A stretch of DNA of 64,000 bases. It comes from Gonocerus acuteangulatus (lineage: Eukaryota > Arthropoda > Insecta > Hemiptera > Coreidae). The number at the start of each line of letters is the position of its first letter. Within the stretch, counting starts at the first letter, position 1. The notes under the pieces were generated by a model. It did not search any database. It was not told where the DNA came from and saw only the letters and a list, made by a program, of their open reading frames with translations. The position numbers and the translations under genes were made by a program. The stretch lies in contig OX328125.1 in the NCBI GenBank assembly GCA_946811695.1, forward strand, positions 43,272,709-43,336,708. Reading direction: 5' to 3'. Shown piece after piece: positions 3,198 to 50,500 of this stretch.

Positions 3198-3352
3198 ATT
3201 CCAAAGGTCGTGGGTTCGATTCCCACTAGGGGTGGTGGCTTTTCTTTCGAAAAAAGAAAAGGCATCAACCCTATCCTGGCTAGAAAAGGGGGGTAACCTA
3301 TAGATATCCCGTCCTAAAATTCGTAGTTAATAATAAATGGACGTTAAAAATT
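3198..3352 (+). repeat. SINE-A, 5'-truncated copy
   Basis: Carries the tRNA-like B box (GGTTCGATTCC) near 3211, the family body (gaaaaaagaaaaggcatc; cctggctagaaaagg) and the tail ending 'aataaatggacgttaaa'. The tRNA-like 5' head is missing. Confidence 0.85.
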
Positions 3353-3704
3353 AAAAAAATACTTTATTAGAATCTAATTTTGCCTCTTTTATTTTATATT
3401 GTTTTTTATTCATTTTGTTTTATTAACCATTTATGTGAGCAAATCACCTTGCTGTTGTGGAGCTCGGTAAATAAATAATCTGCATTACAGTTGCATCGAA
3501 AATATTCGAGATTCAATATCATCCAAGGATGCATCTGAATCCTATTGCGTCCATTCCTCTGCTGTTTACAACACCACTGGACTCCAAATAAGGCATTCGA
3601 TTGTCTTGCTTAATAGCTTGAAGTGGACCCGACATCTGGCTTCTATCTTCAACTCCTTTTGAATATTCTCTTCGCAGCTCAAAGAAAAAAAAAATAAATC
3701 ATTA

Positions 3705-11029: not shown

Positions 11030-14000
11030 GTATTAATTTAAAATCCTTCACCTCAGAAAATTGTAGAATTCTCGTCTATCTTAACATAAATGTCTTTCAG
11101 GGCTATGTGAACTGGAGAGTAGAAAGTCTAGAAAACACCTATCTGCTGATAAAAATGAATCCAGATTGGCGAGATTACAATCTTTTGATTGTTTTACAGA
11201 CAATCCCTTGATAATGGGTCCCAAATATGAAGAAAAAGATTTTAAGTGTAGCTGGGCAACATATTTGGGTCAAGATACTGCAGGAATATTGGGTACAATT
11301 TTATTTACATATAACCAATATTAGTTTAATAAAATAACTTTTATCTAGAAATTCTAACTAAGATTAGGTTGATCATGTAACCAAGACTAAGTTAATCATC
11401 ACTAATTACACGAGCACATCACCTTGCCGTTGTGCAGCTCCGAAAATAAATAAACAAAATAACTTAATCATATAACCAATATTATTTTAATAAAATTATT
11501 TGTGACTAGAAATTGTAACCTAAGTATCACTATTGTAATCTCCTCTCTAAAGTTATAGTAATTAAAGCTGTTTTTAAAAGCAGTGAACATCTTTTTGAAG
11601 CTCATTTTAACTTCATCTTTTTTTTTTTACTTGCTGAATACCATGCTTAGTTACGGCAGATAAGTAGTTATTTCATTGCATTAAATAATGTATCGTCAAA
11701 ATTAACTCTACTATATAATTTTGTGCAGTTTATTATTGCATGGTTCCCGTCATACTATATGTTTTTCTTCAATTGAAAAGTAATCAAAGTATAATGTTTC
11801 TGGACACTGGGGCGCACCGGACCAGTGTCAACAAACAGACAACCTAGAGATTTCCCGTTATCTATAGGTTACCAGTAACGGGAGTTTAACCAGTACAGGT
11901 TAAAATTTGTTTTCAATAATAAATAGATGTGAAAATTTATGTTTCCAAGACGTCATTTAGAAAAACCCATTATATTTGCGAGCATTAGCTAGAAGTGTTC
12001 CGACTGGGGATGCTGATGGTTGAGGAGACTGCAAGGGTTTAGGATATTATTACCTCAGATTGACCATCACCAGGTATAGTGTAAACTCTATGAGGGACAA
12101 AATCACAGTTAATTTCTAATAATTCAAGGTCTGCCATCATAGTTGGGATAGACGGCAATTTAAAATAATATTATGAAATACATACAGTACGGCAACGCAT
12201 GTTGCCTAGGCATACATGCTCTCCTTTTTAAATTTTAACGTCCATTTATTATTAAGTACAAATTTTAGGACGGGTTATCTATAGGTTACCATCCTTTTCT
12301 TTTTTCTAAAGAAAAGCCACCACCCCTGATGGGAATCAAACCCACCACCCTTGGCTTGGAGTGTTAAGTGCTCAAGCCTTAACCCTCACGGCCATTGGGC
12401 CTCCGCATGCTCTCTTTAAAACCAACTAAAAATTTAAACCCCTCTAAAAATACTTTAAAACTTGATTATCAAAAAAACCTTTCTTAGCGAGTGTTTACAT
12501 CCTAAAGGGAGTCTCCATGTAAAATTTTAAATTTTTCTGTCATCTAGTTTGGCCTGGACGATGATAGGTCAGTAAGTCAGCGAGTGCTATTTGACAAATA
12601 TATAGTAGATTTAATTTTAGGAGCATTCCTTTTATTTTAAAATTTCTTCTACGGTACTTGGTAAACATTGTTTTATGTGTAAATGTAACTCTGTGAGTTT
12701 ACTTGCTCAATATTAGTCACAAATATTGCTTAATATTATTTTTTTTTTTTTTTTTTTTTATACGGCGCATCTACATCTAGGTCATTTGCGCCGACATCCA
12801 GAGTGCAGCAAGGAATTTTACTAGCTTGGGAATCGAACCCACTATCTCCCGCTTATGAATCCAAGGCACTAGCCATTAGACCACGGGAGACCCCTGCTTA
12901 ATATTAGAGAAAATATTTGCAAAAGATTATATATCGTCTTGTAATATTAATTATTTTAATTTTTGTCAAAATATATAGACACAAAAGTAAAAGCAAGAAG
13001 AATTTTATATGATCTGTTAATTACTTAGATTTTTTTAAACATATTTATTATATAAATAGATTTCAATTAATTTGAGTATTATTATTTTGTTCCTGCCAGT
13101 GGTTGGATTAAATGATGGAACAAAAGATGTTTACAGGCTTCATAATTTACACCCAATGCGAGTTTACCACGTTAAAGGTACTTTTGGATACATGACAAAT
13201 AATTTGTATAAGGATGGTAAAATTCTTGATAAATCATCATTTAAACATATTAAAAAAGGAGCTATGGAATCATTGTTGTCTGCTGTCCAGGCTTCACATC
13301 AACGGAATATGTATGAGTAAGTAAATGTAGTGTTTTTTTGTTACAGTAACTTTGTTTCTCCATCATTTTATCAACAAAAAAAAAAGGTACTTACGTATTA
13401 GCTCCACCACATCTAGGTCAGAGAGCTGAGTTATCAGCACAGGCACATAACTCATTAGAATTTCGGGAAATAAGGCTGTTATGTTTGTAGTAAACTTCTT
13501 GTTTTTCTTTCTGTTGTTAACAAAATTCTTTACTTTCTGTTGACATGCAAAAATCAACCATCGATACAAATTTATTTCCACACAGGAGTTCATACCCAGA
13601 CAGACGAGAGAATGTGGGGAAGTGCTAAATGGAGGAACATGAGACACACGGGGACAGCCAGGCATCATTTCGAGTCATATATAGTTGAGTACGTATGGTG
13701 ACAACATAATAGCAAGGAAAAAAGGGACTATTTTGAAGCCATGTTAAATAATATATTTGTCCATTAGCCAAAAATTGGCTACCCTGAACCATTCAGATTG
13801 TGACGGCCATTTTGAATCGACAACTACTGGCCTCTGTCGGCTGTTAGATGAAGTGCTGTTGTGCTGGCCTCTGCCGGGTATCATTATGAACTAAACTCAC
13901 ATTGTTTGACCGATTTTCGTAACTGGGTATAGACAACTAGGTATAAAGTAGATCTTGATACGGGGAGAGTCATAGACAGAAAGCAGGTGTAGCATGGCAC

Positions 14001-15949: not shown

Positions 15950-17309
15950 TCATGGGGTGCACATCGGATGTTGTCCAATTGTGTGAGTCCTATATAGCTT
16001 CTCCCAAGCTCCTGATGAATCTCAGATACTGACAGACTTCCGATGACCTCATGATTTCATCCTTGCCAAGGCTACCAAAATGCAGGAATCGCTTCTTTTC
16101 CAGTAGTACACACTCAAATGTAACAGGTGTCTCATCCTTATTTTATTCTTGCACCATCTGCATATCGGTGAAGACCTCTTTTTCATAACATACATATGCT
16201 TATTTAGGGTACAGTGACCTGAGACAGTTGCAACTGTCTCCTACAGGTCTCTTCTGGTCATATCCAGAATTATGTCCTTCTTACCCAATTCCTTGAGATT
16301 CTCCAAACTTCTATTTGACTCTTCCTGCTATTGCTCCCCTGGCACAGGCCATTGATAGTCCAACGAATGGCAACCCATTGCCACTGGCGCGGAAATTGGC
16401 CATTTCCGCGCCTGCCCTTGCCAGCCTGTTTGCCCTCCCATTGTTTAGGATATCTCTTTGTCCTGGTACCCAATAAATGACAACCTTATTGTTTTGGGCC
16501 AACTCATTTAGCCTTACTTCCAACCAACCCTTTTAGCCTGATCTTCATTTTGTACGCATCCCGGAAAGTGCACTCCCAGCAGCACCTCAAGTGTTTGTTG
16601 AGTACTGATTGTATTCCCATCGGGCCCCTCAGGGACCCTAATTCGCAATCTATGCCGCTTTTGGCCAGGGCTTTATGGACCCTCGCCCCCGTGTTTACTT
16701 CTTCGATTTGCTCGCAGAAGTCTCTCCATGATTGTCTTTTAGACATCAATTCCGTAGGCTGAAACATGCAGTACCCTCTATCATTAATGTCAGATCGAGG
16801 ACCTCGCGTCTATTCCTTGTCTCGAAAGTGTGTTTATTCCCCACATTATTGAAGTTAATGTTATTAATAACCAGAAATTCAAAAAAAAAAAGACTCGCCT
16901 CTATCATTGCTATCCCTGCTACCCTAAATCTGTTGGGAAGCATATAAGTGCAGATCACTACCGTCTTCCTTTCTGCCCTTATATATTCCACCAGCTTCTC
17001 CAGACTAATGGTGGGAATTTCCTGGTCTCCAGGTAGATAGGTGGTTAGTAAGCTACATAACGAGCTCTCCAAATGAATTTTCATAACTGTACAAGATTCT
17101 TTTTACTAAGTATGATTTTATATATTGTTAAAGCCTATAGATACGTTTTCTCCCTTCCCGTTATGTACATAAACTCGTTGTTTGTGAGCCATATGTCCGA
17201 AACAGTAATGTCATGGTCAGGTATTCTAATGTGTTCTTGGAGGAAGTCCAGGGTCAACTTAATCGTCGCCTGTCTTGCAATTCACAACTTTCCCTCCAGC
17301 TTCAAATAA
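15950..17309 (-). mobile_element. Non-LTR retrotransposon remnant (endonuclease + RNase H)
   Basis: On the minus strand, 17309-16746 encodes part of an APE-type endonuclease (YLPGDQEIP; then NVGNKHTFETRNRREVLDLT, the usual N-x-G-x-x-TF ... V-x-DLT signature). 16767-16504 matches the linker after it (SWRDFCEQIEE). 16523-16270 matches a LINE RNase H (VVIYWVPGQRD...NGRANRLA). The reverse transcriptase that should lie between linker and RNase H is deleted. Frames are broken between blocks. It resembles jockey/R1-type LINEs. Its 5' end abuts the virus-like insertion. Confidence 0.82.
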
Positions 17310-17352
17310 TATTCAATATTTCAGGCGTAGCGAGCGAAATCCTCCTCTTCTG

Positions 17353-17751
17353 ATGACCCTGCGTTCATATATCGCTGCGAACCCCTCTGTCGAAACCATC
17401 ATCCGTATTTGTGGGAGAAGTCTGAGAATCCACTGCATCTACACGTCACTTATTTATTATTATGGAAGCGTTGATCGTCGGGGTTTCGGTCAGATTTATA
17501 TGTGTAATATACATAGCTTGACTTCTCAACAAGCTTATAAAATGAGTTATATATTTGAAACATTTGATAGGGATGATCATGTTGGTAATGTTTATCGCAG
17601 GAGATACTCGAGCTACGATTTATATAATCAGCGTATCGAGTTTTTGAATGGTCATCCTAAGTTCTTTCACCTTATAAATTACCGGGACAATACGTATTCA
17701 AATGTTGATTGCTTATTATCTCTTATAGATCTGGGATTATGGACAGTGTAG
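17353..17751 (+). CDS. Unrecognised ORF at the 5' end of the virus-like insertion
   Basis: 132 codons from ATG 17353 to TAG at 17749-17751. The frame is open upstream to a TTG at 17275, but that part overlaps LINE sequence, so the ATG is preferred. The product is rich in Tyr and Arg, with no signal peptide, clear membrane segment or motif that I recognise. It overlaps the Rep start (ATG 17739) by 13 bases in another frame, and it shares the T-rich codon style of the rep and cap frames, so it probably belongs to the viral genome. It could be a movement, structural or regulatory protein, or the remains of something larger. Function unknown. Confidence 0.55.
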   Translation: MTLRSYIAANPSVETIIRICGRSLRIHCIYTSLIYYYGSVDRRGFGQIYMCNIHSLTSQQAYKMSYIFETFDRDDHVGNVYRRRYSSYDLYNQRIEFLNGHPKFFHLINYRDNTYSNVDCLLSLIDLGLWTV

Positions 17752-19015
17752 AGTTTATTGATTATCCACTGGACATTGACTGGGATGCTGTTGCCAGTGA
17801 CGTCATTGGGAGCATCGACTCTGACCTCGAACTGATATCAGCCGCGAACGCGGCTGAGGCTGGCGTAGCTAGAACACCCCCTACGCCAGCCGCTCAAGTC
17901 GCCGCTCCTCCTCCAGCCTTATAAAGGTCAGGCGGTTCATCGTCCTCTCAGGTTCCCACCAATTCTACTCCCTCCTCCTCCTCCCGGCCTATTACAAATA
18001 GAGGCAGGAAGAATTTCTTCCTCACAGTTACACTCTCACGCTTTTCTCTATTGTCCAGTACTTGATCGCTGTGGAAGTTGGGGATTTAGTAGGATTGTAC
18101 CATCTACATATATTTTTCCAAACAGAGAGTAAGTATCCCTGTTCGTTTATACTTGATAATATTAGATCCGTTTGGCCCTTGTTTCGTATTGACTTACAAC
18201 CGGTTAAATCTCCTCGAAACGTCATAACTTATTGCTCTAAGGAAGATTTTAAATTGTTGACTAATATTTCAATTTCCAAATTACATAAGAATTATCGGGA
18301 TGTCCATTACGCAAGTACTCGTGAAAATTTTAATTATTATGATCCGTATGTATTACAGCATAAACAGTATTATAAATTTTACCAAAATTTGCACTCCGAA
18401 ATTAAATCGTCTGTTTCCAAAACGTTGTGTTACCTTTGGCCGATGGTTTTACCAGATGTCGATTGGGTTAAACAAGTTTATAACTGGTACTTGGAATTTG
18501 TTACGAGACAATATCGGCATAAGAGAAAGCAATTATTTTTATATGGTAGAACGAATATTGGTAAGAGCTCATTCGTCCAATTTCTTTTACGCGATATTTA
18601 TCCTAACGTTTATGTTGCTGGTCGTGGACAATATTGTATGGGCGCTTTCAATTCTAAATTTCATAAGGCAGTTATATTCGATGAATTCGATATTAAAAAT
18701 TTTGATGAATCTTATTTAAAACTTATATGGGAAGGTGGTTATTTTAAAATCAGTCAAAAATATGAGAAGGATCGTTTAGAATCTGTTAGGGTTCCAATTT
18801 TTATTATCTCAAATTATCCGCCTATATTTGATGATGCTTTGCAGGGTCGAGTAACTATTGTTCATGGCACCGACGCGATCTCGTACGAGATTGAGGAATT
18901 TGCGGCGCCGGAGATCTCGCCGATTATCGAGCATGACGAAGGCATTTGGTCGGCTCCGAATCGCGAGGAAACGCAATCGCAGGAGGAGGAGGAGAATGAG
19001 GAGGAGGAGGAGTAG
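17739..19015 (+). pseudogene. rep: Rep (HUH endonuclease / SF3 helicase), two lesions
   Basis: Rep nicks and rejoins the viral origin and unwinds DNA in rolling-circle replication. From ATG 17739 the frame encodes an acidic, then Ala/Pro-rich region and stops at TAA 17922-17924. The same frame then continues through a Ser-rich stretch to a motif-I-like FFLTV (near 18011-18030) and ends at about 18060. The rest is in another frame, open from 17999 to 19015: HUH motif HLH (18101-18109), motif III YCSK with the nucleophile Tyr (about 18230-18241), Walker A GRTNIGKS (about 18545-18568), Walker B VIFDEFD (about 18671-18691) and motif C FIISN (about 18800-18814). So there is one in-frame stop and one frameshift; the helicase part is unbroken. 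The C-terminus is almost pure Glu, overlapping the cap start. The N-terminal extension before motif I (about 90 codons) is unusual, because Rep normally starts near motif I. Confidence 0.85.
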
Positions 19016-19811
19016 AAAATTAACACTTATGTCTACTAATGTAAATCCTAATAACCTTGCCAGATATAGGCAAAGGTGGATCGCTTCAGCCGTATTAGTG
19101 TATGCTGTTGGATTTGGGATAGATACTAGTCATTTTCAGTCTTTTATACAATTAAAATTACCTAGTTCGTATGCAGGATTGTTCAGTAATTTCTGTCAAC
19201 AGTATCGCCGTTGTTTGTTAACTCGGCTAACTTTTAAAGCTACCAAGTTTAATACTGTAAGGTATGCTTTTTTGGCTGAGAAGGACGCAACAGATGCTGA
19301 TCGGAAAAAGGTTGCTGATACGTTTGCTACTATTGGTACTATTGTTAATTTACAAGAAATTATAAAATCTGATAATGGGTTACCTACTTCTATATTGTGT
19401 ACGCGTGACGATGTTCACGAGTTACCAATGGAGTTTGTTTATAAATCTGTGGAACCCCGTGATATTGATGTTGCGGCTCATACTAAGTTCGATACTAATG
19501 TTTCGAACAAAATGAGCTTTAAGTGTATGACATGTTATTCTAAAATTTTTCATAAGATCTATCCCAAATGCAAGAAGTATATTTCTAGTAATAATATTTT
19601 GAATTATACTAACTTTAATTCTTTATTGTCTGATATGGGTGCTGAGCGATCTTTAAATGTATTGTATCTTAGACCTTTCAAGGATCAAGCTTTATATAAG
19701 GATGACAAAATTAAAATGAATGTTATTACTGTAAATTTTGAATTTGAGTGTAATAGTTTTTGGACATTTATAGATAATACCAATAGAGAATTTGTTAAAA
19801 TAGAACAATAA
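18864..19811 (+). CDS. cap: Capsid-like protein with Arg-rich N-terminus
   Basis: 315 codons from ATG 18864, uninterrupted to TAA 19809-19811. The first 55 residues are dominated by Arg with few acidic residues, like the DNA-binding, nuclear-targeting arm of circovirus-type capsids. The remaining 260 residues have no named motif but have the length and mixed beta-type composition expected of a single jelly roll. The start overlaps the rep end by 152 bases in another frame. An AATAAA follows the stop within 15 bases. I identify it by position, size and basic arm, not by sequence similarity. An intact frame next to a broken rep is notable. Confidence 0.7.
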   Translation: MAPTRSRTRLRNLRRRRSRRLSSMTKAFGRLRIARKRNRRRRRRMRRRRSRKLTLMSTNVNPNNLARYRQRWIASAVLVYAVGFGIDTSHFQSFIQLKLPSSYAGLFSNFCQQYRRCLLTRLTFKATKFNTVRYAFLAEKDATDADRKKVADTFATIGTIVNLQEIIKSDNGLPTSILCTRDDVHELPMEFVYKSVEPRDIDVAAHTKFDTNVSNKMSFKCMTCYSKIFHKIYPKCKKYISSNNILNYTNFNSLLSDMGAERSLNVLYLRPFKDQALYKDDKIKMNVITVNFEFECNSFWTFIDNTNREFVKIEQ

Positions 19812-19826
19812 AAAATAAATCAATGT
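19806..19826 (+). terminator. Poly(A) signals after capsid-like ORF
   Basis: The sequence 'acaataaaaaataaatc' spans the stop codon and gives two overlapping AATAAA hexamers, which fits a compact viral transcript end. Confidence 0.5.
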
Positions 19827-19923
19827 TTCAGTGGAATTTTGGGCGAGGGTCGCTCAGCACCCATATCAGACAATAAAGAATTAAAGTTAGTATAATTAAT
19901 ATAATATAGTAAGACTGGAAGGA

Positions 19924-20195
19924 TGGGGCAGGGCTAGACAGGAGAGGATGGGGGGGAGGGGGTGGAGAGAAGTGGAGCTGGGAGTAAGGACGGAGGGTAA
20001 AGACCGCGGTAAAGATAAAGGACTTGCCTATGGATATTGCAGGTACAGGGAAGGATTGGGCCAGGGCTAGACAGGAGAGGATGGGGGTGAGGGGGTGGGG
20101 AGAAGTCGACCTGGGAGTAAGGACAGAGGGACGGCGGTAAAGATAAAGGACTTGCCGATGGGTATTGCAGGTACAGGGAAGGATCAGACGGTGTG
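19924..20195. repeat. G-rich tandem repeat, two copies of about 134 bp
   Basis: 'cagggctagacaggagagga' recurs at a spacing of about 134 bp (19932 and 20066 for 'gctagac'). The intervening G-rich sequence and 'aaagataaaggacttgcc' are also repeated. It lies between the virus-like insertion and the Penelope element and may be the latter's 3' repeat. Confidence 0.8.
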
Positions 20196-20239
20196 TGGGA
20201 ATAGGGCAACGAACCGGGTGGGATTACCTAACGGGAGGT

Positions 20240-21226
20240 TTTGAGGATATGGAAAATGTTGGAATAGGTTGAGGAGATGACTTCTTTGTCAATTTTGTCA
20301 TTGACGGGATTGTTTTCTAGATGGATATATATGGATTCAGAAAGGAGACGCTTCTCAAGGTTGGGTTCAGTGGAGAGGATGGAGAAGTTTTGGAAATCAA
20401 ATTTATGTCCGTCCGTGATAGCATGTCTAGAAAGTGCGGTTTTAATGTCTCTGTTCTTAATGTTGTATTTGTGTGTTGTGAGTCTGCTATGAATGCGGTT
20501 CTTCGTCTGTCCAATGTAAGTGCTGTTGCAGTGTGGTGTAGAGCAAGGAATTCGGTAAACGACGTTGGATCTATTTCCTTGTGGGATGGGGTCTTTGAGT
20601 GTGGTATATAGGGTTTTCAGTTTATTTTTAGTGGATAGACCTAGATTTAGGTTGGGAAATGTGCTTCTGAGGGATTTTTGGATTTTTTCAGAGAGGTTAG
20701 GGATGTACGGAAGGGATCTGAATAGGGGGGCGACACTATCTTGCGAGGTGGAGGGGGGTTTAGGATTTTTAATTGAATTTATGAGGGAGGTGATGGTGTG
20801 TTTCGGGAATCCATTGGCTTTGAGTATTTCTAGGAGTCGGGATGTGTTCTTGGGATGAAATTTAGGATCAGATAGGGTAAGGGATCAAAATATTAGGTTT
20901 CTAGCTGTATTGAGGATTTGATGAGGGGGGTGTGAGGATTGGTAATGGAGGATTCGGCCAGAGTAAGTGGGTTTGGTGTACCAATCGGTGGATAAGGAGC
21001 CATCGGGGTTTCTAATCACAAGTAGGTCTAGGAAGGGTAGAGAGTTATTGGATTCGGTTTCAACGGTGAATTTCAATCGGGGGTGGTAGGAGTTAAAGGC
21101 GGCTAAGATCTGAGGAATACTATGCGGGTTGGCGCTAACTCCTTGGGTAATGGTTTCTAAGCCTGTTTGCTGGCGGCGGCGGCGGCTTCGACTGCGCGGG
21201 CTGTGACTGCTGGAGATATGTAACAC
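20240..21226 (-). mobile_element. Penelope-like element, RT C-terminus and GIY-YIG domain
   Basis: Minus strand, 21226-20885 encodes the end of a Penelope reverse transcriptase (FNSYHPRLKF; LPFLDLLVIRNPDGSLSTDW; YTKPTYSGRILHYQSSHP). A stop follows at LIF. Downstream, 20590-20285 encodes the linked GIY-YIG endonuclease in an open frame: NVVYRIPC, CNSTYIGQTKNRIHSRL, H-x-YNIKN, and the acidic LLSESIYI near the end. The order RT then GIY-YIG is diagnostic of Penelope-like elements. The N-terminal RT is missing. No ATG-initiated frame covers the endonuclease part. Confidence 0.9.
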
Positions 21227-21227
21227 T

Positions 21228-21480
21228 CATACACATTCTGCGTCTCAGCTTCACAGATTCCAAAGAAGCCGAAAAGAATTCGCGAGGTATGGCCACGTCG
21301 GGTAGGTTGAAGTACACCTCGGTTCCCGTCGGTGTGATGAACTTCCCTACATTCCTTACGTATTCTTGAATTACCTCGGGCACTAGGTACTCAGTACCAT
21401 CGACAGTCAGCATGTCCAAGGCTAACTCTCCATCAGTAAGGGGACATCCACCTTGCTCAACATAGTTGAAGGCACGGATA
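21228..21480 (-). pseudogene. Unidentified coding fragment
   Basis: An open minus-strand frame (part of 21488-21135) reads like real protein over about 75 residues (LTDGELALDMLTVDGTEY; VGKFITPTGTEVYFNLPDVA). It has balanced composition and no low complexity. It is squeezed between Penelope and copia sequence and belongs to neither. It could be a fragment of another virus or transposon. I do not recognise the family. Confidence 0.4.
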
Positions 21481-22790
21481 CCTTGCAACTATTCCACGAG
21501 CGATGGGGTCATATGGATAAGCAATACCTACGAGCAGAGCTGCAGTCTGAACTAGGCATTGCGGTAAAACCAAGCAAAGAACTATGTGGGCCATGTCAAT
21601 TTGGAAAGGCGCACCGGCAGCCATTTGGCACCAGAGTTCGATCATCCAGACCAGGTGAATTGATGTCAGGAGATGTATGTGGTCCTTTTGATAAATCATT
21701 CAACGGGCGCAGATATTTGATTGTTATCAAAGACCACTTTTCACATTTCCGTTTTTGTTTCGTCGCACGGGAAAAATCAGCCGTGAAAGATGCTATACGA
21801 GAAGTATTGGCCAAGGCTCGATCAGTCGGCCATCAAGTGAAAGAATTCCTCAGTGACAATGGAGGAGAATTCGATAATGAAGAAGTTTGCGCTGTGTCGC
21901 GATTTGGAGTTACTCAAAGACTCACTGCACCGTATACTCCTCAACAAAATGGTGCAATAGAACGTGAAAATAGAACCATCGTCGAAATGGCACGAACGTT
22001 CAAGTATTCTAACCCAAACGTTGAGTTCCCTGTAGCTATTTGGGCTGAACTAGTTATCACGGCTGGCTATATTCTAAATCAATTAGGAAAATCATCAATC
22101 GAGGGCAAAAGTCCTCCTGAAGTTTGGTTTTGTCAAAAACCATGAATCAAACATTTGTGAATCATCAGTTCCAAGTGCTATGTCCATATTCCCGCGCAAT
22201 AGAGGAAGAAGATGGACTCAAAAGCATTAGTTGGATATCTCGTTGGGTATGATGGCGATGAACGGTTCAGAATATATGTACCCGAAAAACGAGATATTGT
22301 GATATCGAGAGACGTCATCTTCCTAGAGAAAATGGGTGATTGTGAAGAACGTGTACCCTTACCTATAAAAATAGAGGACCCAACCATCCAAAAGGAGGAT
22401 TGCGAAAAATTAACGGAAGAAAGGACTGAGAAATCGGACAGTTCTATCGGAATCATCTTCAACTGAAGATGAAGAGGAAAATGCAAGTGGACCAGGTAGG
22501 TCACCACCTCCTGGTTTTTGATCCAGGAGTTCACGAAAATGTCAAAAACCCTCCTACCTAAATGATTACGTCACAGTTGCAGAGGTGTTTCTTGTGGAGG
22601 ATGAACCTAAGACATTTGCTATGGGGAGATTCAATATGGCTGAGTGTAATGCAATCAAAATACCCATGGAAAAATTAAGGAGTCGAGATCCAGGGCAAGC
22701 ACCTATCAATTTTCCCAATCGATCAGCTTTTGGTGCTTTGATATTTCCTTTGCCATCAGCATTTTGTTCCTAAAACTACTCGATTAAGGG
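21453..22790 (+). mobile_element. copia retrotransposon fragment (integrase to RT)
   Basis: 21453-22145 encodes the GAG-pre-integrase domain (LFHERWGHMD; C-x2-C as CGPCQFGK) and the integrase core (GDVCGPF; SDNGGEFDN; PYTPQQNGAIERENRT), giving the D-D-E triad. 22212-22340 has the copia linker (KALVGYLVGYDGD; RDVIFLEKMG). 22600-22680 has part of the RT domain (FNMAECNAIKIPMEK). Frames shift between the blocks and most of the RT is missing. It is one of only two plus-strand elements in the 16-32 kb cluster. Confidence 0.88.
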
Positions 22791-27162: not shown

Positions 27163-28120
27163 TGTTATAATTAAACTAAAATGAATTAATTAAAATATTT
27201 GAATTAGAGAATTGTGCCACGTTGAGTCGGCAAAAGGTATAATATTTAAATTTAAAAACTCTTTTTCTCAGGGGTCGGGTTCGAGTCCAGTAAAGTAAAA
27301 CAAAGATAATTTTAAATAAGACCCGGTAGCCGTGAGGGTTAAGGCGTGAGCTCTTAACACTCCGTGCCAAAGGTCGTGGGTTCGATTCCCACTAGGGACG
27401 GTGGCTTTTCTTTCGAAAAAAGAAAAGGCATCACCCCTATCCTGGCTAGAAAAGGGTGGTAACCTATAGATAACCCGTCCTAAAATTCGTAGTTAATAAT
27501 AAATGGACGTTAAAATTTAAATAATTTTAAATAATAAAAACAAAACAAAAGAAAAAACTCATAGATAAGTTACATCCAGGCATAGGAATAAACAAGCATT
27601 ACCTGATATAAAGCCAGCTTTGTATTAACTGCATAGGACAGGATCTGCTTTACAACTGTATCTTCATTTACAGACTGAGCCTAGGCTTCATGAAAACTGA
27701 TGACCATCTGAGACTAGCTGTGCACTGAACGAGAGCTGCATTAGGAATGACTGTAGCTTCTTTTGAACTGCACTTATGAGACTGTATCTTCTTGTTAACT
27801 GAACTGCACTTATGAGATTGTATTTTCTTGTGAACTGAACTGCTTTTAACAGACTGACATGTATGTGACTGTTTCTTCCATTACAACTCAACAGACTGCC
27901 ATATGAGACTGGAGCCACCTTTTCACAGACTCAACTCAACTTTCATGGCGGGAGCGTCCTACCGGTATCCAATGCTACCTGTATCCACTGCTAGACAAAT
28001 ATAACCAATAATATTTGTTTATCCCAATTGAATTTAACATATCAATGAGCTTTTTGAATTTTCAGAATTTTCTGTGTTAATTTTAAAAATTTTAAATATA
28101 TAATGTAAAATATCATTACA
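27163..28120 (-). repeat. 3' LTR of non-autonomous LTR element
   Basis: Starts TGTTATAATT, ends ATCATTACA. About 755 bp without the SINE-A at 27319-27521. Confidence 0.85.
27319..27521 (+). mobile_element. SINE-A, full copy in LTR
   Basis: Head 'acccggtagccgtgag', B box GGTTCGATTCC near 27378, tail 'aataaatggacgttaaa'. Perfect 12-bp duplication TAATTTTAAATA (27307-27318 and 27522-27533). The matching site in the other LTR is empty, which confirms the duplication. Confidence 0.95.
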
Positions 28121-29718: not shown

Positions 29719-30534
29719 TGTTATAATATAAATAAAAATTTTATTTTTAATTAGTTTATCTACGTTACGCCTCTACGTTGGGAGCCAAAATAATTATAAT
29801 TAAACTAAAATGAATTAATTAAAATATTTGAAGTAGAGATTTGCGCCACGTTGGGTCGACAAAAGGTATAATATTTAAATTTAAAAACTCTTTTTCTCAG
29901 GGGTCGGGTTCAAGTCCAGTAAAGTAAAACAAAGATAATTTTAAATAATAAAAACAAAACAAAAGAAAAAACTCATAGATAAGTTACACCCAGGCATAGG
30001 AATAAACAAGCATTACCTGATACAAAGCCAGCTTTGTATTAACTGCATAGGACAGGATCTGCTTTACAACTGTATCTTCATTTACAGACTGAGCCTAGGC
30101 TTCATGAAAACTGATGACCATCTGAGACTAGCTGTGCACTGAACTAGAGCTGAATTAGGAATGACTGTAGCTTCTTTTGAACTGCACTTATGAGACTGTA
30201 TCTTCTTGTTAACTGATCCGCACTTATGAGATTGTATCTTCTTGTGAACTGAACTGCTTTTAACAGACTGACATGTATGTGACTGTTTCTTCCATTACAA
30301 CTCAACAGACTGCCATATGAGACTGGAGCCACCTTTTCACAGACTCAACCCAACTTTCATGGCGGGAGCGTCCTACCGGTATCCAATGCTACCTGTATCC
30401 ACTGCTAGACAAATATAACCAATAATATTTGTTTATCCCAATTGAATTTAACATATCAATGAGCTTTTTGAATTTTCAGAATTTCCTGTGTTAATTTTAA
30501 AACTTTTAATTATGTAATGTAAAATATCATTACA
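29719..30534 (-). repeat. 5' LTR of non-autonomous LTR element
   Basis: Direct repeat of 27163-28120 from 'taattaaactaaaatgaatt' to ATCATTACA, with a roughly 70-90-bp extra segment near the TG end. No SINE. Confidence 0.85.
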
Positions 30535-41500: not shown

Positions 41501-44500
41501 ATGAGCAAGGAAATCATGCAAGCAGCACCTATGAATGGTGCACAATTTACCAAAATAAAATGCTTATTTTTTTTTATTTCATGGCAATGGCATGAAACAT
41601 GTAGAGTAGTGAATACAGGATTTGAAGCAGAAATAACTGTGTTTTTATAATTCACCATCCACAACGTTTAAGTAATTCATTAATATTAAAAGTCACAAAA
41701 AACAATAAAAATAAAATGGTAAAAACAAAGACTGGTACTACAAATGGCTTCATGCTACAAGTCCAAAGCTCGAAGGCGCTTTTTAGCCATCCCAGTATTA
41801 TTTATAAGTGGTCCTTAAAATTTAAATCATTTAAGAATAAGCATAAGATAATCCCTAGTATTTTTATTAAATGGAATTAAAGAAATACAAATATATAGGT
41901 TTTTTATGATTCACAAATATTACAATTTTTTGGAATGGGCTGCAATTAAATAAATTTAACAATCACTTCTGTATATTAAATTTTGAAACAATATTAAATA
42001 CCTCATATTTGGCGTACATCGGACACCTTTTTCCAATGGCTTTCATGTTTGTTTCCAAATCCAGCACCATGCGAACAGGTTGCTGCAGTTTATGGGCTGC
42101 AAGAGAACATGCTGTGGCAACAAAAGCACTTCGGGTAATTTTTGCACCATAAGCTCCACCTACTCTTTTTACTTCGACATTAATGCTGAAAATTTATGAA
42201 ATGATTACATTTATATATTAGTATTATAGTGTGTCACTTTCAAATGTAATTGAGCCACTTCCAGCCACTTATTTTCTTAAAATGTTTTCCACTCTCAGGT
42301 TCTTCAAGCCAATATTTGTGGCGCAAGAGAACTGACCAGATTAAAATTATATAAATATTAAAATTATGTATTCCTAATATTACGTTACTGCTGTCACACT
42401 AAAAGAAATTACTTGGTCGAAAGAAAATTTTAATCTAAACCCCATTTAATAAAGGACTATTTATCTAGTAAAAAACAAGAAATTAGCTACCCAATGTTTA
42501 TATATGAACATTGGTTTATTTGGTAAGTCAAAAATTTGGAGGAAATACTTCATTAATATTACAGGTGAATAAAATTTAAAAAAAAAACCTTTATGTATAA
42601 TTAAAGATTAAAATGGGTGCTAACACTATTTTAATCTAAAAAGAATTATCTCATATTTATTTTTATGAATAACAAAACATCTTATTTACCTATTGAGTGG
42701 AATATTTAAAACTTTGGATATTGCAGCTTGCGTATTATGCATCCATTGAGTAGATGAATACACATTAAGCCCATCTTCTATTGGAATACAAACACATGTT
42801 TGAAGCTCCATTGTATAGTGATACTGTGATCCCATTTCCAACTCTCCTATTATTTTGTGTGCTATATTTCCTGAAAATGGAAAACAAATATTTGCACAGA
42901 AAAATGAATACTATTAAGAGTTAAAGATTTTAGTTGAATCTAAAAGTAAATATAAATACAGGATGATTAATTTACTGATTTTAAGATAAATAAAAATAAT
43001 TTATTTCTACCATAGATGGAAAATGTATTACTTTTTTTTATTATTTGTTGTTGCAGTTCCGCTTCATGGCGATGTACACCTTACATTTTATATAGTTAAC
43101 AGAACATTATGTCCCCTTATTGCCTATATATTTATATTATGTATATATTATTACATATATTTTTAGTGACAGTTTTGCCAGAAAAATCGTAGTGCAAACA
43201 CTATTCTATCAATAGGCTCCCAGTTATACATTTTATGGGTATTTTGATGTGGTAACATTTGGAAAAGCAATAGTATTAAAAATGTCTGTAATATAAATTA
43301 TTTCATTAACATACATGAGCAGCTTTGGACTTTTTTTTTTATTTATAAGAGGAAAGTGAGCACTCAAAAGCTTAGTAGATTTCTCACAAGAAAGATTCTT
43401 TAACCTCAGCTGGAGAAATCAGTGTTATAAATTTTGAATGTTTTTGTTTCGCTCCTTTGAAGGTGTTTATTTTTATTTTTTTGGTTAGTTTAAAAGTATG
43501 TTAAGTCACTGATTGTTGTTACCTTGTGTATCTGTAGGTTCAATTTTCCCTCCCAGGGCAATTCGGGAGCTGTCACCACTTGCTATTACTTCTTGGACCG
43601 TCAAGAGTGGTCTTTTTGCAGAAGAATATTTGATTATTACAGCTTTAGCGGCTTTGTTTGCCAAGTCTTGAGTACATGCAACTATCAGTCCTACTGGCTG
43701 CCCAGCGTAAAGAACGTCTCCACTGCAAAACAGCTAAACAAAATGAATGACCATCTCTGTTTAAGTATCATAATAAAGTAATGATGCAGTGTTTCTTAAA
43801 TTACGAAATATTTAACCTTAGTCATTACATTCTTTCCAGCAAAAAAAATTAGTAACAACCAAATCTACTATATATTTGTCAAATACCACTCACTCACTCA
43901 TCTATCATCCCCCAGCCCAAACCGTTCGACAGAAAATTTTGCATGGACACTCCCTATATAACGTAGGCACTCACTAAGAAAGGATTTTTTGATATTCGAA
44001 TTTTTAAGTATTTTTAGGGGGGTTTAAAGTTTTAGTTGGTTAGAGCAGGCAAGCCAAGGCAGCATGCGTTGCTAGGACGATAACAGAACAGCTGTTACCG
44101 TACATTATCTATTTCATAGTATTATTTTTAATTGAGGTTAATTTCAACTATGTTGGCAGACTTTGAATTACTGGGGTATGGAATACTATCAACTTGGAAT
44201 AGTTTTAGGCAAATAAAATTAAAATGAAATGATCTTTGGAATGAAAAAGGAATGGATCAAACCAATTGTGCTTATAAAAGAAATGATCTTATTTAATTTA
44301 TTTTTAAGGTTTATAAGACACATTTTAACCATCAAATCAAAATTTCGGGGGGGCAGGACATCCCTCAGTTGCCCTTATATACGCCCACGCTGGTAACCTA
44401 TAGATAACGGGTTATCTCTACGTTATCTGTTTTTTTGATACTGGTGCGAAGCATCCCAATGTCAAAAAACATTATACTTTGATTACCTATAAACTGATGA

Positions 44501-47500
44501 CTAACTTATTGTATGACGGGAACCGTGCTATAATAATTTGCACAAAATTAAGTAGGAGTGTTAATTTCGATGATACATCATTTAACGCAATAAAATAACT
44601 ACTTATCTGCCGTGACGAAGCACGGGTATTCAGCTAGTATTTTATATATATCAAGCGGAAGTTAAGCACAGATAAAACTATAAAAAGCTTTTATTTATAT
44701 TTAAGCATTAAGATCGAATAAATTCAAGAAGAAAAAGAGTTAGCAATACAAACTCCAATAGATTGAGAGGATATCGTTGACCGTTGGTGATGCAAAGGTA
44801 GAATTTTTCAGGGTTCGGTCGTTGTTTCCTAATAAAACTACATTTTACAAGTGAAAATGGGTTTTATTGTTTGCCAACCTTTTGGCTTGGAATTAATGCC
44901 TTCATCAGGACTCGTTATGTTGTGTTGATTGAGGATTCATCTGTTGTGAGGCAGAGTCAGGTCTTGAGCTCGAGGCGATGGTTTAGGAGATATTATTTGC
45001 AGACAACAAAATTAGTGCTGATGAAGGCTTGAATTTCATTCCGAAACGTCGGTAAACAATAAAACCAATTTTCATTTGTAAAATATAGTTGTAAGAAACA
45101 ATTGTAGTAAGAAACAACAATCCAACCCTGACAACTTCCACCTTCGCAAACTCCAATAGTTTTCAATAAAATAAAATGCTTACCTACTCCTATTTATAGG
45201 AGTATATCAACATTTTTATATTTCATATAACTCAACCTTATTATAATTGAATTAATATAATGTCATATTTTTCTTTATTTGTTCCTTGAAATAGCTAAGT
45301 TATTTTTAATAACTTTTTAATTTGAGGATGCTAAGCGCTTAATAATATATATGACAAAATGTAGTTAATTACCTCTTCTTCTTCTGTTGTAATGAAACCA
45401 TCAATTATTGCAAATGAATTCTTCCCTGGAATATCTTTGGCAGAATAAAATGCAACAACTCCAGGTGCATTCTAAAAATCAAAGCAACTCAACTTAAGGA
45501 GTAATACTACCTTGTGCGATCAATATCAAAGTCATTTTCTTGAATTTATAAATAATAATTGAATCAATATTTTTCAATTCTTTATATTGTTGGGATTTGC
45601 AGTTTGTGTTATCAAAGTTCCCAAACAAATTTTAAACAAAATATAATAAATTTTTATTATATAAATTGAAATTAATAAAATGTCCTTAGAAACTTGAATC
45701 AAATAAAGAATCCAATAAAAAGGAGATGCTGCTTGAAATATGCGGTTGCTCTTGAAAAAATTACTTAAGATGAGAGACTCACTGATACAGCTCTTCTGTG
45801 AAGCACTTGTCTCGACTCCCTGTCACTGGATATAGTTTGATTGACACAGGCAAGCACTGAACATTGTCTCAGAATTGTCTTAAAAACTTTTCGCCTAACA
45901 AGCTTTATATGAAAACTGTGAGCATATGTTAGCAATCATTTGATATTTTTTAATATTATATAAAAGCTGCTACATTGCTCCCCCCCTGATGACGGAGTCA
46001 GCGAAGAAGACCTTGCGTTTAACTAGCCTTCCAGCTCTTGTTCTATACTCTGAGGGCGGCTCGGGTTGCAGGTTGCTAGTTGCAGGCAGTGGTTCAATAG
46101 TGGAAGGTAGGCCTGGTTCTGGTATCTGCGTCGTGGGGTCTACTTGCTTCGATGAAGGAGATGTGGTTTGCGGCTGGAGGTTGGTTGATGAAGCGGCGTT
46201 CCTCTCTATGTCGGTCGTAAGAAGATAAGCAGGCTTCAATCTGTGTTGGCCGTCAAAATCAAAAGTGTTTGGCCGTACGACTTAATACTTTATGAGGACC
46301 AGAGTAGGGTGGGTCAAGTGGTCAGCGAACTGCGTCCTCCCTCAAGAATACGTGGGAGCTCGTGTGTAAGTCCTTGTGCTGAAACGTCTTGTGATAACTC
46401 GAACGTGCTAGGGCTGGCTTGAGCTGTGCGAGATCCTGCTTTAGAAGTTGTAGGGCTATGATGGGTTCTTGTTGCACAGGGGTGTCTGCAAGGAATTCCC
46501 CTGGTAACCTTAAGGGCTGTCCATACAGTCCTTCGGCAACACTTGCACCCATATCCTCCCTGAATACCAATCTAAGCCCAAGGAGTACTGAGGGTAGGAG
46601 TGCAACCCATCTGTCTGTCTCCAATTGAGCCATTATTGCAGCCTTCAAACTCCTGTGCCACCTCTCCACACAACCGTTACTTTGCGGGTGGTAAGCAGTT
46701 GTTCGCTTTTTATCGATACCTAGGAGCGCTGTTAGCCTCTGGAATATCTCTGCCTCAAATTGACGGCCCTGGTCGGTGGAGATCCTTGCAGGTACTCCAA
46801 AGCGAGCAATCCAGTGGGTGTAAAACGCCTCTGAAACCGTGCTTGCCGTAATATCTTCCAGAGGGATAGCTTCCGGCCACCTAGTTGCTCGATCCACCAT
46901 TGTGAAGCAATAACGTTTGCCGTTAGAGGGTGGCAAAGGGCCTATTAAATCCAAATGAATGTGCTGGAATCTTGGTGCCGGTTGAAAGGATCCTAAGGGA
47001 CTGACAGTATGGCGCTGGATTTTACTGCGCTGGCAGGGGATGCAGGTTTTGGCCCATTCGCCTACGTCTGACTTCATACTCGGCCAGAAGTAGCGCGAAG
47101 AAAGAAGTTTTCTTGAAGCACGTATTCCGGGGTGACTTAGTCCATGAAGGCGATCAAACAAAGGTTTCCTGAAGTGCTCAGGAATATATGGTCTCGCCTT
47201 ACATGATGATGTTTCACAAAAGAGCGGGACGTCTTGGCCTGGAATGGTGAGGAGCTTTAAAGTGAGCTTAGGATTCTCTTTTAATTCCTCTATCGTAGGG
47301 TCAGCTTTCTGTGCCTTAGCAATAGCTGCAAAATCATCGGGCAACTGAACCTCTTCTACTCGTGACAGGGTGTCAGCTACTACGTTGTCTTTGCCGGGCT
47401 TATAAATGATAGAAGTAGTGAACTGACTTATGAAATTGAGTTGCCTGATTCTTCGGGGTGAGGCATTGTCTGCCTTCTGCTGGAAAACGTGGATGAGGGG

Positions 47501-50500
47501 TTTATGGTCAGTCACTATAGAGAAATGAAGGCCTTCCAGGAGTGATCTGAAGTGCTTTACGCCCTCGTGGATAGCGAGCAGTTCTCTATCATAGGTGGAG
47601 TAATTCTTTTGTGCTGAATTTAGTTTCCTGGAAAAAAATCCCAAGGGTCTCCAGACACCATTTTTCAGTTGCTGTAACACCGCACCTATGCCTATATCGC
47701 TTGCATCACAGGCCAATGACAACTCTTCACATGTCGATTGGTGCGCAAGTTGTGCAGCAGCAGCGAGGCTCTCCTTGCATTCTTCAAAGGCTCTGGTGGC
47801 TTTCTCAGTCCATTCCTCTGGTCTGTTATCCTTTTTTTTGACGTCGTGCAGTAAGTCATTAAGAGGGCTTTGAATCTCTGCAGCACGGGGAATGCAACGT
47901 CGATAGAAGTTTATCATTCCAAGAAATCTTCTGAGTTGACAGATAGTGGCGGGACGAGGAAAATCAGCAATAGTTTTTACCTTGGATGGCAAAGGGCTTA
48001 TTCCCTCCGAGTTGACTTTAAAGCCTAGGAAGCAGAGTTGGGCAAACGTTAGCGCGCGCTAAAAGCTGATACCTCTCCGCTAATTTAGCGAAACTGTAGA
48101 AAGCCAGCGCTAATAATTAGCGGTTAGCGGCGGCAGTGCGCTAACCGCTAATCTATTTATGAAATATGGTAATTGCTGAACCGGCAGTGACCAGGAAGTA
48201 ATTGTAAGCAACCGGAAGTGGTCCGAAGTTGTCCAGATTCATCCGGAAACTGTCCAGGAGTAATTTTGGTGACCGGAAGCCATTTTGAGAACCCGGAAGT
48301 GAAACCGGAAGTGGTCTAAAGTTGTCCAGATTCGTCCGGAAACTGTCCAGGAGTAATTCTGGTGACCCTGAAGCCATGTAGAGAACCCGGAAGTGAAACC
48401 GGAAGTGGTCTAAAGTTGTCCAGATTCATCCGGAAACTGTCCAGGAGTAATTCTGGTGACCCGGAAGCCATTTTGAGAACCCGGAAGTGAAACCGGAAGT
48501 GGTCTAAAGTTGTCCAGATTCATCCGGAAACTGTCCAGGAGTAATTCTGGTGACCCGGAAGCCATTTTGAGAACCCGGAAGTGAAACCGGAAGTGGCCAA
48601 AAGCTGCTCAAATTCGCCCGGAAATGCCCCAGGGATATTCAAAATGGATTCCGGGTCACCAAAATTACTCCTGGACAGTTTCCGGATGAATCTGGACAAC
48701 TTCGGACCACTTCCGGGTTCTCAAAATGGCTTCCGGGTCACCAGAATTACTCCTGGACAGTTTCCGGACGAATCTGGACAACTTTAGACCACTTCCGGTT
48801 TCACTTCCGGGTTCTCAAAATGGCTTCCGGGTCACCAGAATTACTCCTGGACAGTTTCCGGACGAATCTGGACAACTTTAGACCACTTCCGGGTTCTCAA
48901 AATGGCTTCCGGGTCACCAAAATTACTCCTGGACAGTTTCTGGATGAATCTGGACAACTTCGGACCACTTCCGGTTTTTTAAATTACTTCCGGGTCACTG
49001 CCGGTTCACCTCCGGACTATAATGAGTGCCTGGAAGGCCCTGGGGTACTTCCGGAAACGACCCAGGGATGAATATAGGACCGGAAGTAACCTAGATTAAG
49101 GAGTGTCAGAGTGTGCCATTGTCTGTGAGTGACCGGAAGTGAGCCAGATCGAACAGGAGTTACCCAGTGATAGGCATGAGTCGACCGGAAGTAACCGAAA
49201 TTGACATTCATGTGATCGGAAATCCTGTAGATTGAAGCGGAAGTGGAACAGGAGAGAGGGTGCTCAGAGCAGACCGGAAGTGAGCTTTGAGATGACAAAA
49301 TGTTGTAACTATAGCTTAAGCTTTCAGCAATTACCATATTTCATAAATAGATTAGCGGTTAGCGCACTGCCGCCGCTAACCGCTAATTATTAGCGCTGGC
49401 TTTCTACAGTTTCGCTAAATTAGCGGAGAGGTATCAGCTTTTAGCGCGCGCTAACGTTTGCCCAACTCTGCTAGGAAGTCAACCTGAGATTCACCAAAAT
49501 TGCACTTCGAAATGTTCAAGGAGAGTCCGTTTGCCTCCAGCCTCTTGAATACTTCACGAAGGTGTGCTTCATGTTGCTTTTCATCTTCTGAGGCGATAAG
49601 ATAATCATCCGTGTAGGGAAACACAAAGTCCAAGTCACGCATGATGTTATCCGAAAACCGTTGAAAGGTTTGGGCTGCGTTTCGAAGTCCAAAGCACATC
49701 CAAAGGTATTCGATTAGCCCAAAGGGAGTAGCAATAGCAGTTTTCTCGATGTCCTCTTCCGCTATAGGGATGTGGTAGAAAGCGTGAACAATGTCGAGCG
49801 TTGAAAAGATTTTTTTGCCATGTAACTGTGTTGTAAAGTTCATGAGGTTAGGAACAGGATATCGGTCGGGGATGGTTTGTGCATTCAAACGACGATAGTC
49901 ACCACAAGGGCGTAAGCTACCATCTTTTTTTATAACCACATGTAGCGGGCTCGACCATGGGCTCTTAGATGGTCTGCATATCCCCTCATTCATGAGCTCC
50001 TGAAAATGCTGCTTTACTGCTATGTATTTATCGGGTGCCAGCCGTCTTGCCTTGCTTGTGACAGGATTACCACTGGTAAGTATGTGGTGTTGGACGACGG
50101 TAGGTGGTGGGCCTCTGATGGGTGTAGGTCTGGTCAGATTAGGGAAGTCTTTCAGCAGATGTGAATACTTGCAGTTTCCAGGGATAGTAGATATAGTAGG
50201 TGTCGAAACCATCAACACAATACCAATCGCTCCTAACCCGGTGTGTTGATCAGTGAGCTTCTTCTGACGGAGATCGACACTAAGTCCGTGATGGTACAAG
50301 AAGTCCGCGCCAAGGATTGGCTTCCCAATTTCTGCGATGACAAATGTCCATTTCAGGGGTCGACGAATTCCAATATCCAGCTGCAACAACTTCTCTCCAT
50401 ACGTTGGGATAATTGTATTATTTGCTGCTACTAAGTTGAAATCAGATGGTATCTGTCTCTGAGTGGCATAAACTTCCACTGGACAGTCGATTTCTGCAAT

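What the first reader, a model, noticed from the sequence alone, without database searches (positions are those of the whole stretch)
17353..19811. Three-ORF CRESS-virus-like insertion with an open capsid frame
Unknown ORF, rep and cap follow each other on one strand with 13-base and 152-base overlaps, as if a nearly complete viral genome was captured. Cap (315 codons) and the helicase part of rep are open, while the front of rep has a stop (17922) and a frameshift (about 18060). Unisense rep-cap order and the third ORF do not match circovirus or cyclovirus layout, so it may represent an undescribed lineage. An intact cap may mean recent insertion or a retained host use.
Basis: partly seen in the sequence, partly recalled or inferred. 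Interest (0 to 1): 0.9.

Follow-up and report, generated by a model that had tools for sequence, protein, structure and literature searches.

The report
Fossil CRESS-like virus with open capsid
A stretch of this animal-like genome looks like a nearly complete small single-stranded-DNA virus that was copied into it fairly recently, with a broken replication gene but a still readable probable capsid gene.

Summary
The described anatomy is real: ORF1 (17353-17751), rep head (from 17739), rep body (18062-19015) and a cap-like ORF (18864-19811) lie on the + strand with 13- and 152-base overlaps. Rep's front has a stop at 17922 and a frame change near 18059. HUH motifs 2 and 3 and SF3 helicase motifs stand in CRESS order, but no profile reaches its curated cut-off. 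The cap call rests on position, overlap and an Arg-rich head; no library gave cap a match better than E 0.2. New: a piece of cap (19602-19649) recurs as a perfect 48-base inverted copy at 19850-19897, the right edge, which suggests fold-back or end joining of viral DNA. That copy and the open frames fit a young insertion (roughly 1-2% change or less), so host use of cap need not be invoked. No canonical NANTATTAC lies on the element's + strand; a double hairpin at 17838-17891 is the only origin candidate. No relative was found, but the protein database was off, the own-genome search did not complete and no CRESS virus turned up in the collections scanned. A new lineage is possible, not shown. 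Best reading: an endogenous, near-complete unisense CRESS-like virus.

The parts
17353..17751 (+). ORF1, 132 codons, unknown; second half (from inner ATG 17542) has coding-like composition
   Evidence: no Pfam or PHROG match, no curated NCBIfam match (best E 0.056, 12.9 bits vs cut-off 223), no viral contigs relative
17739..17924 (+). rep head, acidic then Ala/Pro-rich, closed by TAA at 17922-17924
   Evidence: only chance-level matches (DUF2694 E 0.12; phrog_10910 E 0.29)
17838..17891 (+). two adjacent GC-rich hairpins (17838-17857 with an 8-bp stem; 17858-17891 with an 11-bp perfect stem and 12-nt loop); only candidate for a replication origin, without the usual nonanucleotide
   Evidence: fold of 17820-17960 z -4.4, 0 of 200 shuffles as stable; 1 of 300 block shuffles of the element has such a stem, but the 64 kb window holds 7 perfect stems of 11 bp or more with GC 50% or more, this one included; no ANTATTAC on the + strand of the element
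17925..18062 (+). rep front after the stop: open in the rep-head frame, with a motif-1-like stretch at about 18012-18029, then a change of frame near 18059
18062..19015 (+). rep body: HUH motif 2 (18101-18109), motif 3 (18230-18241), Walker A (18545-18571), Walker B (18671-18691), motif C (18803-18823)
   Evidence: coordinates; Pfam DUF5906 E 2.7e-5 on the helicase piece, RNA_helicase 0.024, PPV_E1_C 0.079, Gemini_AL1 0.089 and REP_ORF2-G2P 0.056 on the HUH piece, all below curated cut-offs
18864..19811 (+). cap-like ORF, 315 codons, first 60 residues 28 R+K and 0 D+E
   Evidence: no Pfam, NCBIfam or PDB match, PHROGs only at E 0.22
19807..19819 (+). two AATAAA signals at the end of cap
19602..19649 (+). 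source of the inverted copy, inside cap
19850..19897 (-). perfect 48-nt inverted copy of 19602-19649; right edge of the viral DNA
16052..17300 (-). left flank: broken frames that look by eye like LINE endonuclease and RNase H; the left edge of the viral DNA near 17300 is not sharply defined
   Evidence: for 16749-17102 Pfam gives only Exo_endo_phos_2 E 0.18 and an unrelated glycosyltransferase model at 0.13, both under cut-off
19917..20884 (-). right flank: 133-bp tandem repeat and GIY-YIG frame of a probable Penelope-like element (naming partly recalled)
   Evidence: GIY-YIG E 0.0039, under its cut-off; tandem repeat 19917-20184

Best explanation
This is an endogenous viral element. A near-complete genome of a CRESS-type circular ssDNA virus with unisense order (ORF1, rep, cap) was joined into a transposon-rich stretch of an animal-like genome. 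Shown: ORF anatomy, motif order, the broken rep front, the open cap-like ORF, the inverted cap piece at the right edge, and other DNA on both sides that shares repeat families. Inferred: the viral replication protein nicked and unwound the circular genome by rolling circle; a linear or broken viral DNA end folded back or was ligated to a second viral fragment in inverse orientation; host end joining captured it without a detectable target-site duplication. It has been decaying neutrally since, for a short time. It makes no working Rep now, because the endonuclease front is broken as read. Whether cap is expressed is unknown, and I expect not.
For: HUH motifs 2 and 3 and SF3 motifs A, B and C in the CRESS order in one frame. 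Sub-threshold matches of the HUH piece to Gemini_AL1 and REP_ORF2-G2P and of the helicase piece to DUF5906, RNA_helicase and PPV_E1_C. Weak matches to proteins annotated as DNA primase in 3 of 6 phage records (2 phages, E 1e-3 and 2e-3), to a PHROG primase (5.2e-4) and to a P4-type primase model (0.0089). A motif-1-like stretch in the rep-head frame. Cap-like ORF with an Arg-rich, acid-free head overlapping rep's end. ORFs beyond chance. Element length about 2.5 kb, within the 1.7-3.2 kb of the 10 CRESS genomes of PMC5113903. Inverted cap piece at the edge. Left and right flanks share repeats, e.g. 3201-3358 with 27367-27524 at 95.6% and 11628-11875 with 44390-44639 at 83%.
Against: No profile reaches its curated cut-off; cap has no match better than E 0.22. 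The best PDB match of the rep body is an unrelated protein (8tek, E 2.6e-4). No relative in 6 related-loci scans and 3 pattern scans (checked). No ANTATTAC on the + strand of the element. Single-sequence AlphaFold models are useless (mean pLDDT 37.7 and 32.6), and the Foldseek search with the rep model had 0 of 239 matches at E 0.001 or better.
Confidence: 0.82

Rival explanations
1. The element is a CRESS-like transposon or plasmid-derived replicon, not a virus; the third long ORF is an accessory DNA-binding protein rather than a capsid.
For: Cap matches no family (PHROGs only E 0.22). Several of the rep matches are phage or plasmid primases. Transposon frames lie nearby.
Against: An Arg-rich head followed by 255 residues with 34 R+K and 26 D+E, overlapping rep's end, is a usual capsid layout (layout recalled). 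No second copy in the 64 kb window apart from the inverted piece. No other long inverted repeat of high identity in 16900-20300 (longest 25 of 138 pairs shown).
Confidence: 0.08
2. Cap, perhaps with the rep helicase part, is kept by selection for a host use such as antiviral interference.
For: The two lesions seen lie in the front 323 of 2073 bases; by chance p 0.024 (0.004 if a third lesion is counted). Rep body and cap are both open; jointly this happens in only 0.3-5.5% of neutral runs at 2% change.
Against: The perfect inverted copy and the simulations allow a younger neutral element: at 1% change cap stays open in 23-45% of runs, cap and rep body jointly in 6-22%, and the 48-nt pair stays identical with probability 0.38. 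No expression or between-species data.
Confidence: 0.06
3. The rep front is not broken but contains an intron, or the rep head is a separate small gene; the stop and frame change are then viral gene structure.
For: The most acceptor-like YAG of 47 in 17740-19811 (14 of 17 pyrimidines) sits at 18057-18058, just where the frame changes.
Against: The motif-1-like stretch lies directly upstream of that site, and the stop at 17922 lies before the best donor-like site that I saw by eye, so no single intron explains both (donor judged by eye, not scored).
Confidence: 0.07
4. Assembly chimaera: a virus present in the sample was joined to host contigs, or the rep lesions are sequencing errors.
For: No second assembly or reads could be examined. 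The genome search did not complete.
Against: Both flanks share repeat families, so they come from one genome. An inverted edge piece and an interrupted rep fit an integrated copy better than a replicating virus.
Confidence: 0.05

Closest known systems
CRESS-type endogenous viral elements of invertebrates (PMC6069186, passages seen)
   Same: Rep-derived sequence in an animal-like genome, divergent CRESS type
   Different: That screen of 675 animal genomes reports only rep-derived new sequences and no new cap (its authors note that divergent caps may simply be hard to detect); here a cap-like ORF follows rep
Hymenolepis microstoma cyclovirus element with rep and capsid (PMC6186406, passages seen)
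   Same: Endogenous rep plus capsid sequence
   Different: Cyclovirus affinity there; here one-strand rep-cap order and no detectable affinity
Whole CRESS genomes in Entamoeba and Giardia assemblies (PMC7493932, passages seen)
   Same: Rep and Cap in one integrated element
   Different: Protist hosts and 73-84% nucleotide identity to known viruses there; no known relative here
Unisense CRESS genomes, types V and VI (PMC5113903) and circularisvirus-like genomes (PMC6186406), passages seen
   Different: The genomes of PMC5113903 carry a nonanucleotide in a stem-loop; none found here on the + strand

Membership tests
CRESS DNA viruses (Cressdnaviricota), as a fossil member | HUH endonuclease with motifs 1, 2 and 3 | tested here: inconclusive
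   motifs 2 and 3 in one frame, motif-1-like stretch in another frame; Gemini_AL1 E 0.089, under cut-off
CRESS DNA viruses (Cressdnaviricota), as a fossil member | SF3 helicase following the HUH domain in Rep | tested here: inconclusive
   Walker A, Walker B and motif C in order; DUF5906 25.2 bits vs cut-off 27.6, RNA_helicase 15.6 vs 21.5
CRESS DNA viruses (Cressdnaviricota), as a fossil member | capsid protein gene | tested here: inconclusive
   Arg-rich 315-codon ORF, no family or PDB support and no usable model
CRESS DNA viruses (Cressdnaviricota), as a fossil member | origin stem-loop with a NANTATTAC-type nonanucleotide | tested here: not met
   no + strand ANTATTAC in 17300-19900; two - strand matches lie inside cap; hairpin loop at 17869-17880 is of another sequence. 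It may lie in a part not captured
CRESS DNA viruses (Cressdnaviricota), as a fossil member | Rep clusters within the phylum in a tree | not testable with these tools
   protein database off; no CRESS relative fetched
Circoviridae (circovirus, cyclovirus) | rep and cap on opposite strands | tested here: not met
   both on +; opposite-strand layout of circoviruses as in PMC6069186
Endogenous viral element | viral sequence flanked by host DNA on both sides in one contig | tested here: met
   flanks on both sides share repeat families; Copia integrase to the right, rve E 7.2e-11; met only if the element is viral, and no read-level check was possible

The most novel reading that the evidence does not exclude
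The element is the fossil of a family-level new, animal-infecting CRESS lineage with the one-strand order ORF1-rep-cap, a long acidic extension on Rep and an origin hairpin that lacks the canonical nonanucleotide and lies within the rep head; its capsid gene is still open because the insertion is very young, so the virus probably still circulates.
Probability: 0.25. Interest if true: 0.65.

Novelty: new member of a known kind. Interest (0 to 1): 0.5.

Why it matters
Integrated CRESS sequences in print are mostly rep pieces: the screen of 675 animal genomes in PMC6069186 found no new cap. A rep-plus-cap element ties an unplaced viral gene set to a host genome, and its edge records how viral DNA joined it. 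If the lineage is new, it gives a capsid sequence to search with and a host to sample.

Tried and rejected
Relatives: tblastn of the rep body against plasmids gave none at E 5. Against phages it gave 6 records with weak hits, read as a shared helicase-type domain only; cap was not searched against phages or plasmids. In viral contigs, 5 related-loci scans and 3 pattern scans gave no relative. The fetched loci were checked by tblastn and phmmer with the rep body; the best phmmer E was 0.19 among 120 loci and 0.24 among all 164. Of the 164 source contigs 5 are under 4.3 kb. The long frames of 4 of these, printed, look by eye like phage proteins; the fifth, L097, was not looked at. So these misses say little about lineage. 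Genome contigs gave none.

Fold: both AlphaFold jobs ran without relatives and were not usable. One BFVD search with the rep model gave 0 of 239 matches at E 0.001 or better, and I rejected it.

A PDB match of the rep body (8tek, E 2.6e-4, residues 64-148) and a Pfam CFAP184 hit over the same residues (E 0.057) fall between the HUH and helicase motifs. I read them as a chance match of a helical stretch and did not pursue them.

Target-site duplication: no exact match longer than 7 bases between 17151-17420 and 19812-19960, and that one is AT-only; rejected. The two edges fold no better than shuffles (191 and 16 of 200 shuffles at least as stable). Intron in rep: considered and kept as a weak rival. 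The hairpin as origin: possible, but the window holds 7 such stems, this one included.

Literature: searches; passages seen of PMC6186406, PMC5113903, PMC7493932 and PMC6069186; others only as search listings.

Full report
What is there. On the + strand of 17353-19811 four open stretches follow each other: ORF1 (17353-17751), the rep head (ATG 17739, stop 17922-17924), the rep body (18062-19015) and a 315-codon cap-like ORF (18864-19811). The longest ATG ORFs of 17300-19910 are 315, 190 and 139 codons; in 1000 dinucleotide shuffles the longest was 177, and 4 shuffles reached ORF1's 132. The rep-head frame, after its stop, stays open to the next stop at 18063 and carries a Ser-rich stretch and a motif-1-like stretch; the rep body then continues in another frame. 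So the rep front is interrupted by a stop and a change of frame. The distance from the motif-1-like stretch to the start of the rep body looks short, which may mean lost codons as well (inference; no relative to compare).

What the proteins look like. The rep body has, in order, an HLH motif 2, a YCSK motif 3, a Walker A, a Walker B and a motif C (the motif names are recalled). No library gives a match above its curated cut-off. The helicase piece matches DUF5906 at E 2.7e-5 (25.2 bits against a cut-off of 27.6), RNA_helicase at 0.024 and PPV_E1_C at 0.079; the HUH piece matches REP_ORF2-G2P at 0.056 and Gemini_AL1 at 0.089. NCBIfam gives a P4-type primase model at 0.0089, far under its cut-off, and PHROGs a primase at 5.2e-4. 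Proteins annotated as primase match in 3 of 6 phage records, from 2 phages, at E 1e-3 and 2e-3. Each match is weak, but they agree on the same two domains in the same order. Against this, the only PDB match is an unrelated protein over residues 64-148. The cap-like ORF matches nothing in Pfam, NCBIfam or the PDB and only a PHROG at E 0.22. Its first 60 residues hold 28 R+K and no D or E. The GAGGAG run is read as Glu in the rep frame (17 E in rep's last 50 residues) and as Arg in the cap frame, so the acidic end of Rep and the basic head of Cap are two readings of one stretch.

Edges. To the left, 16052-17300 on the - strand holds broken frames that look by eye like a LINE endonuclease and RNase H; Pfam does not confirm this (Exo_endo_phos_2 E 0.18, with an unrelated model at 0.13). 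To the right, 38 bases after cap, 19850-19897 is a perfect inverted copy of 19602-19649 inside cap (48 of 48; 59 columns at 95% with the ends). Then come a 133-bp tandem repeat (19917-20184), a GIY-YIG frame (20231-20884, E 0.0039, under its cut-off) of a probable Penelope-like element, and a Copia-type integrase frame (21453-22145, rve E 7.2e-11). The DNA left and right of the element shares repeats, for example 3201-3358 with 27367-27524 at 95.6% and 11628-11875 with 44390-44639 at 83%, so both flanks belong to one genome. No target-site duplication beyond a 7-base AT-only match was found. A short inverted piece of the virus at its own edge fits fold-back synthesis or joining of two viral fragments. 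It does not by itself tell which.

Age. In a simple neutral simulation (2000 runs per setting, indel share 5, 10 or 15%) cap stays open in 23-45% of runs at 1% change, 5-24% at 2% and about 1-11% at 3%. Cap and the non-overlapping rep body together stay open in 6-22% at 1%, 0.3-5.5% at 2% and about 1% or less at 3%. An inverted pair of 48 bases stays identical with probability 0.38, 0.14 and 0.05. Together these point to roughly 1-2% change or less, if the inverted copy arose at insertion, gene conversion did not keep it alike, and the frames were not under selection. The two lesions of rep both lie in the front 323 of 2073 bases (p 0.024 if placed at random). That is a mild hint of constraint, or of a gene structure not understood, and I do not build on it.

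Origin. The + strand of the element has no ANTATTAC. A double hairpin at 17838-17891, with an 8-bp and an 11-bp stem, folds with z -4.4, while the two edges fold no better than shuffles. One of 300 block shuffles of the element has an 11-bp stem of this kind, but the window as a whole holds 7, this one included, so it is a candidate only. It lies inside the rep-head frame, which would be unusual for an origin (recalled).

Placement. The question of lineage could not be answered. The protein database was off. Searches of the window's own genome did not complete. The viral collection yielded no locus similar to this rep, cap or ORF1, and only 5 of the 164 contigs fetched are under 4.3 kb, so it was a poor test for CRESS viruses. 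Circoviridae layout is not met, because rep and cap lie on one strand. Unisense CRESS genomes are known: 4 of the 10 in PMC5113903, and the circularisvirus-like group in PMC6186406. The host is animal-like by its transposon-like frames (by eye) and a weak zf-AD match at 56515-57630 (E 0.016, under cut-off), but it is not identified.

Verdict. I commit to an endogenous, near-complete, recently integrated CRESS-like virus with a broken rep and an open cap-like ORF (0.82). The lineage may be new (0.25). In the one large animal screen whose passages I saw, new elements were rep-derived only (PMC6069186), which makes this a useful new member of a known kind.

Noticed in passing
18864-19015: Rep's Glu-rich tail and Cap's Arg-rich head are two frames of the same GAGGAG/AGGAGG repeats (repeat 18981-19012).
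   Followed up: partly
18057-18058: The most acceptor-like YAG of 47 in the element sits at the point where the rep frame changes; 22 of 1621 YAGs in the window, itself included, have at least as many pyrimidines.
   Followed up: partly
27165-28120 and 29794-30534: Near-identical direct duplicate (96% over 155 bases and 98% over 600), perhaps LTRs or a segmental copy.
   Followed up: no
46322-51076: Two long - strand frames that look like the gag-pol of a Gypsy-type LTR element, split by tandem repeats at about 48200-49000 (naming recalled).
   Followed up: no
21453-22145: Copia-type integrase frame on + (rve E 7.2e-11), near the Penelope-like piece.
   Followed up: no
55896-57630: Two neighbouring - strand frames with a weak zf-AD match in one of them, perhaps a host or transposon-derived gene.
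   Followed up: no
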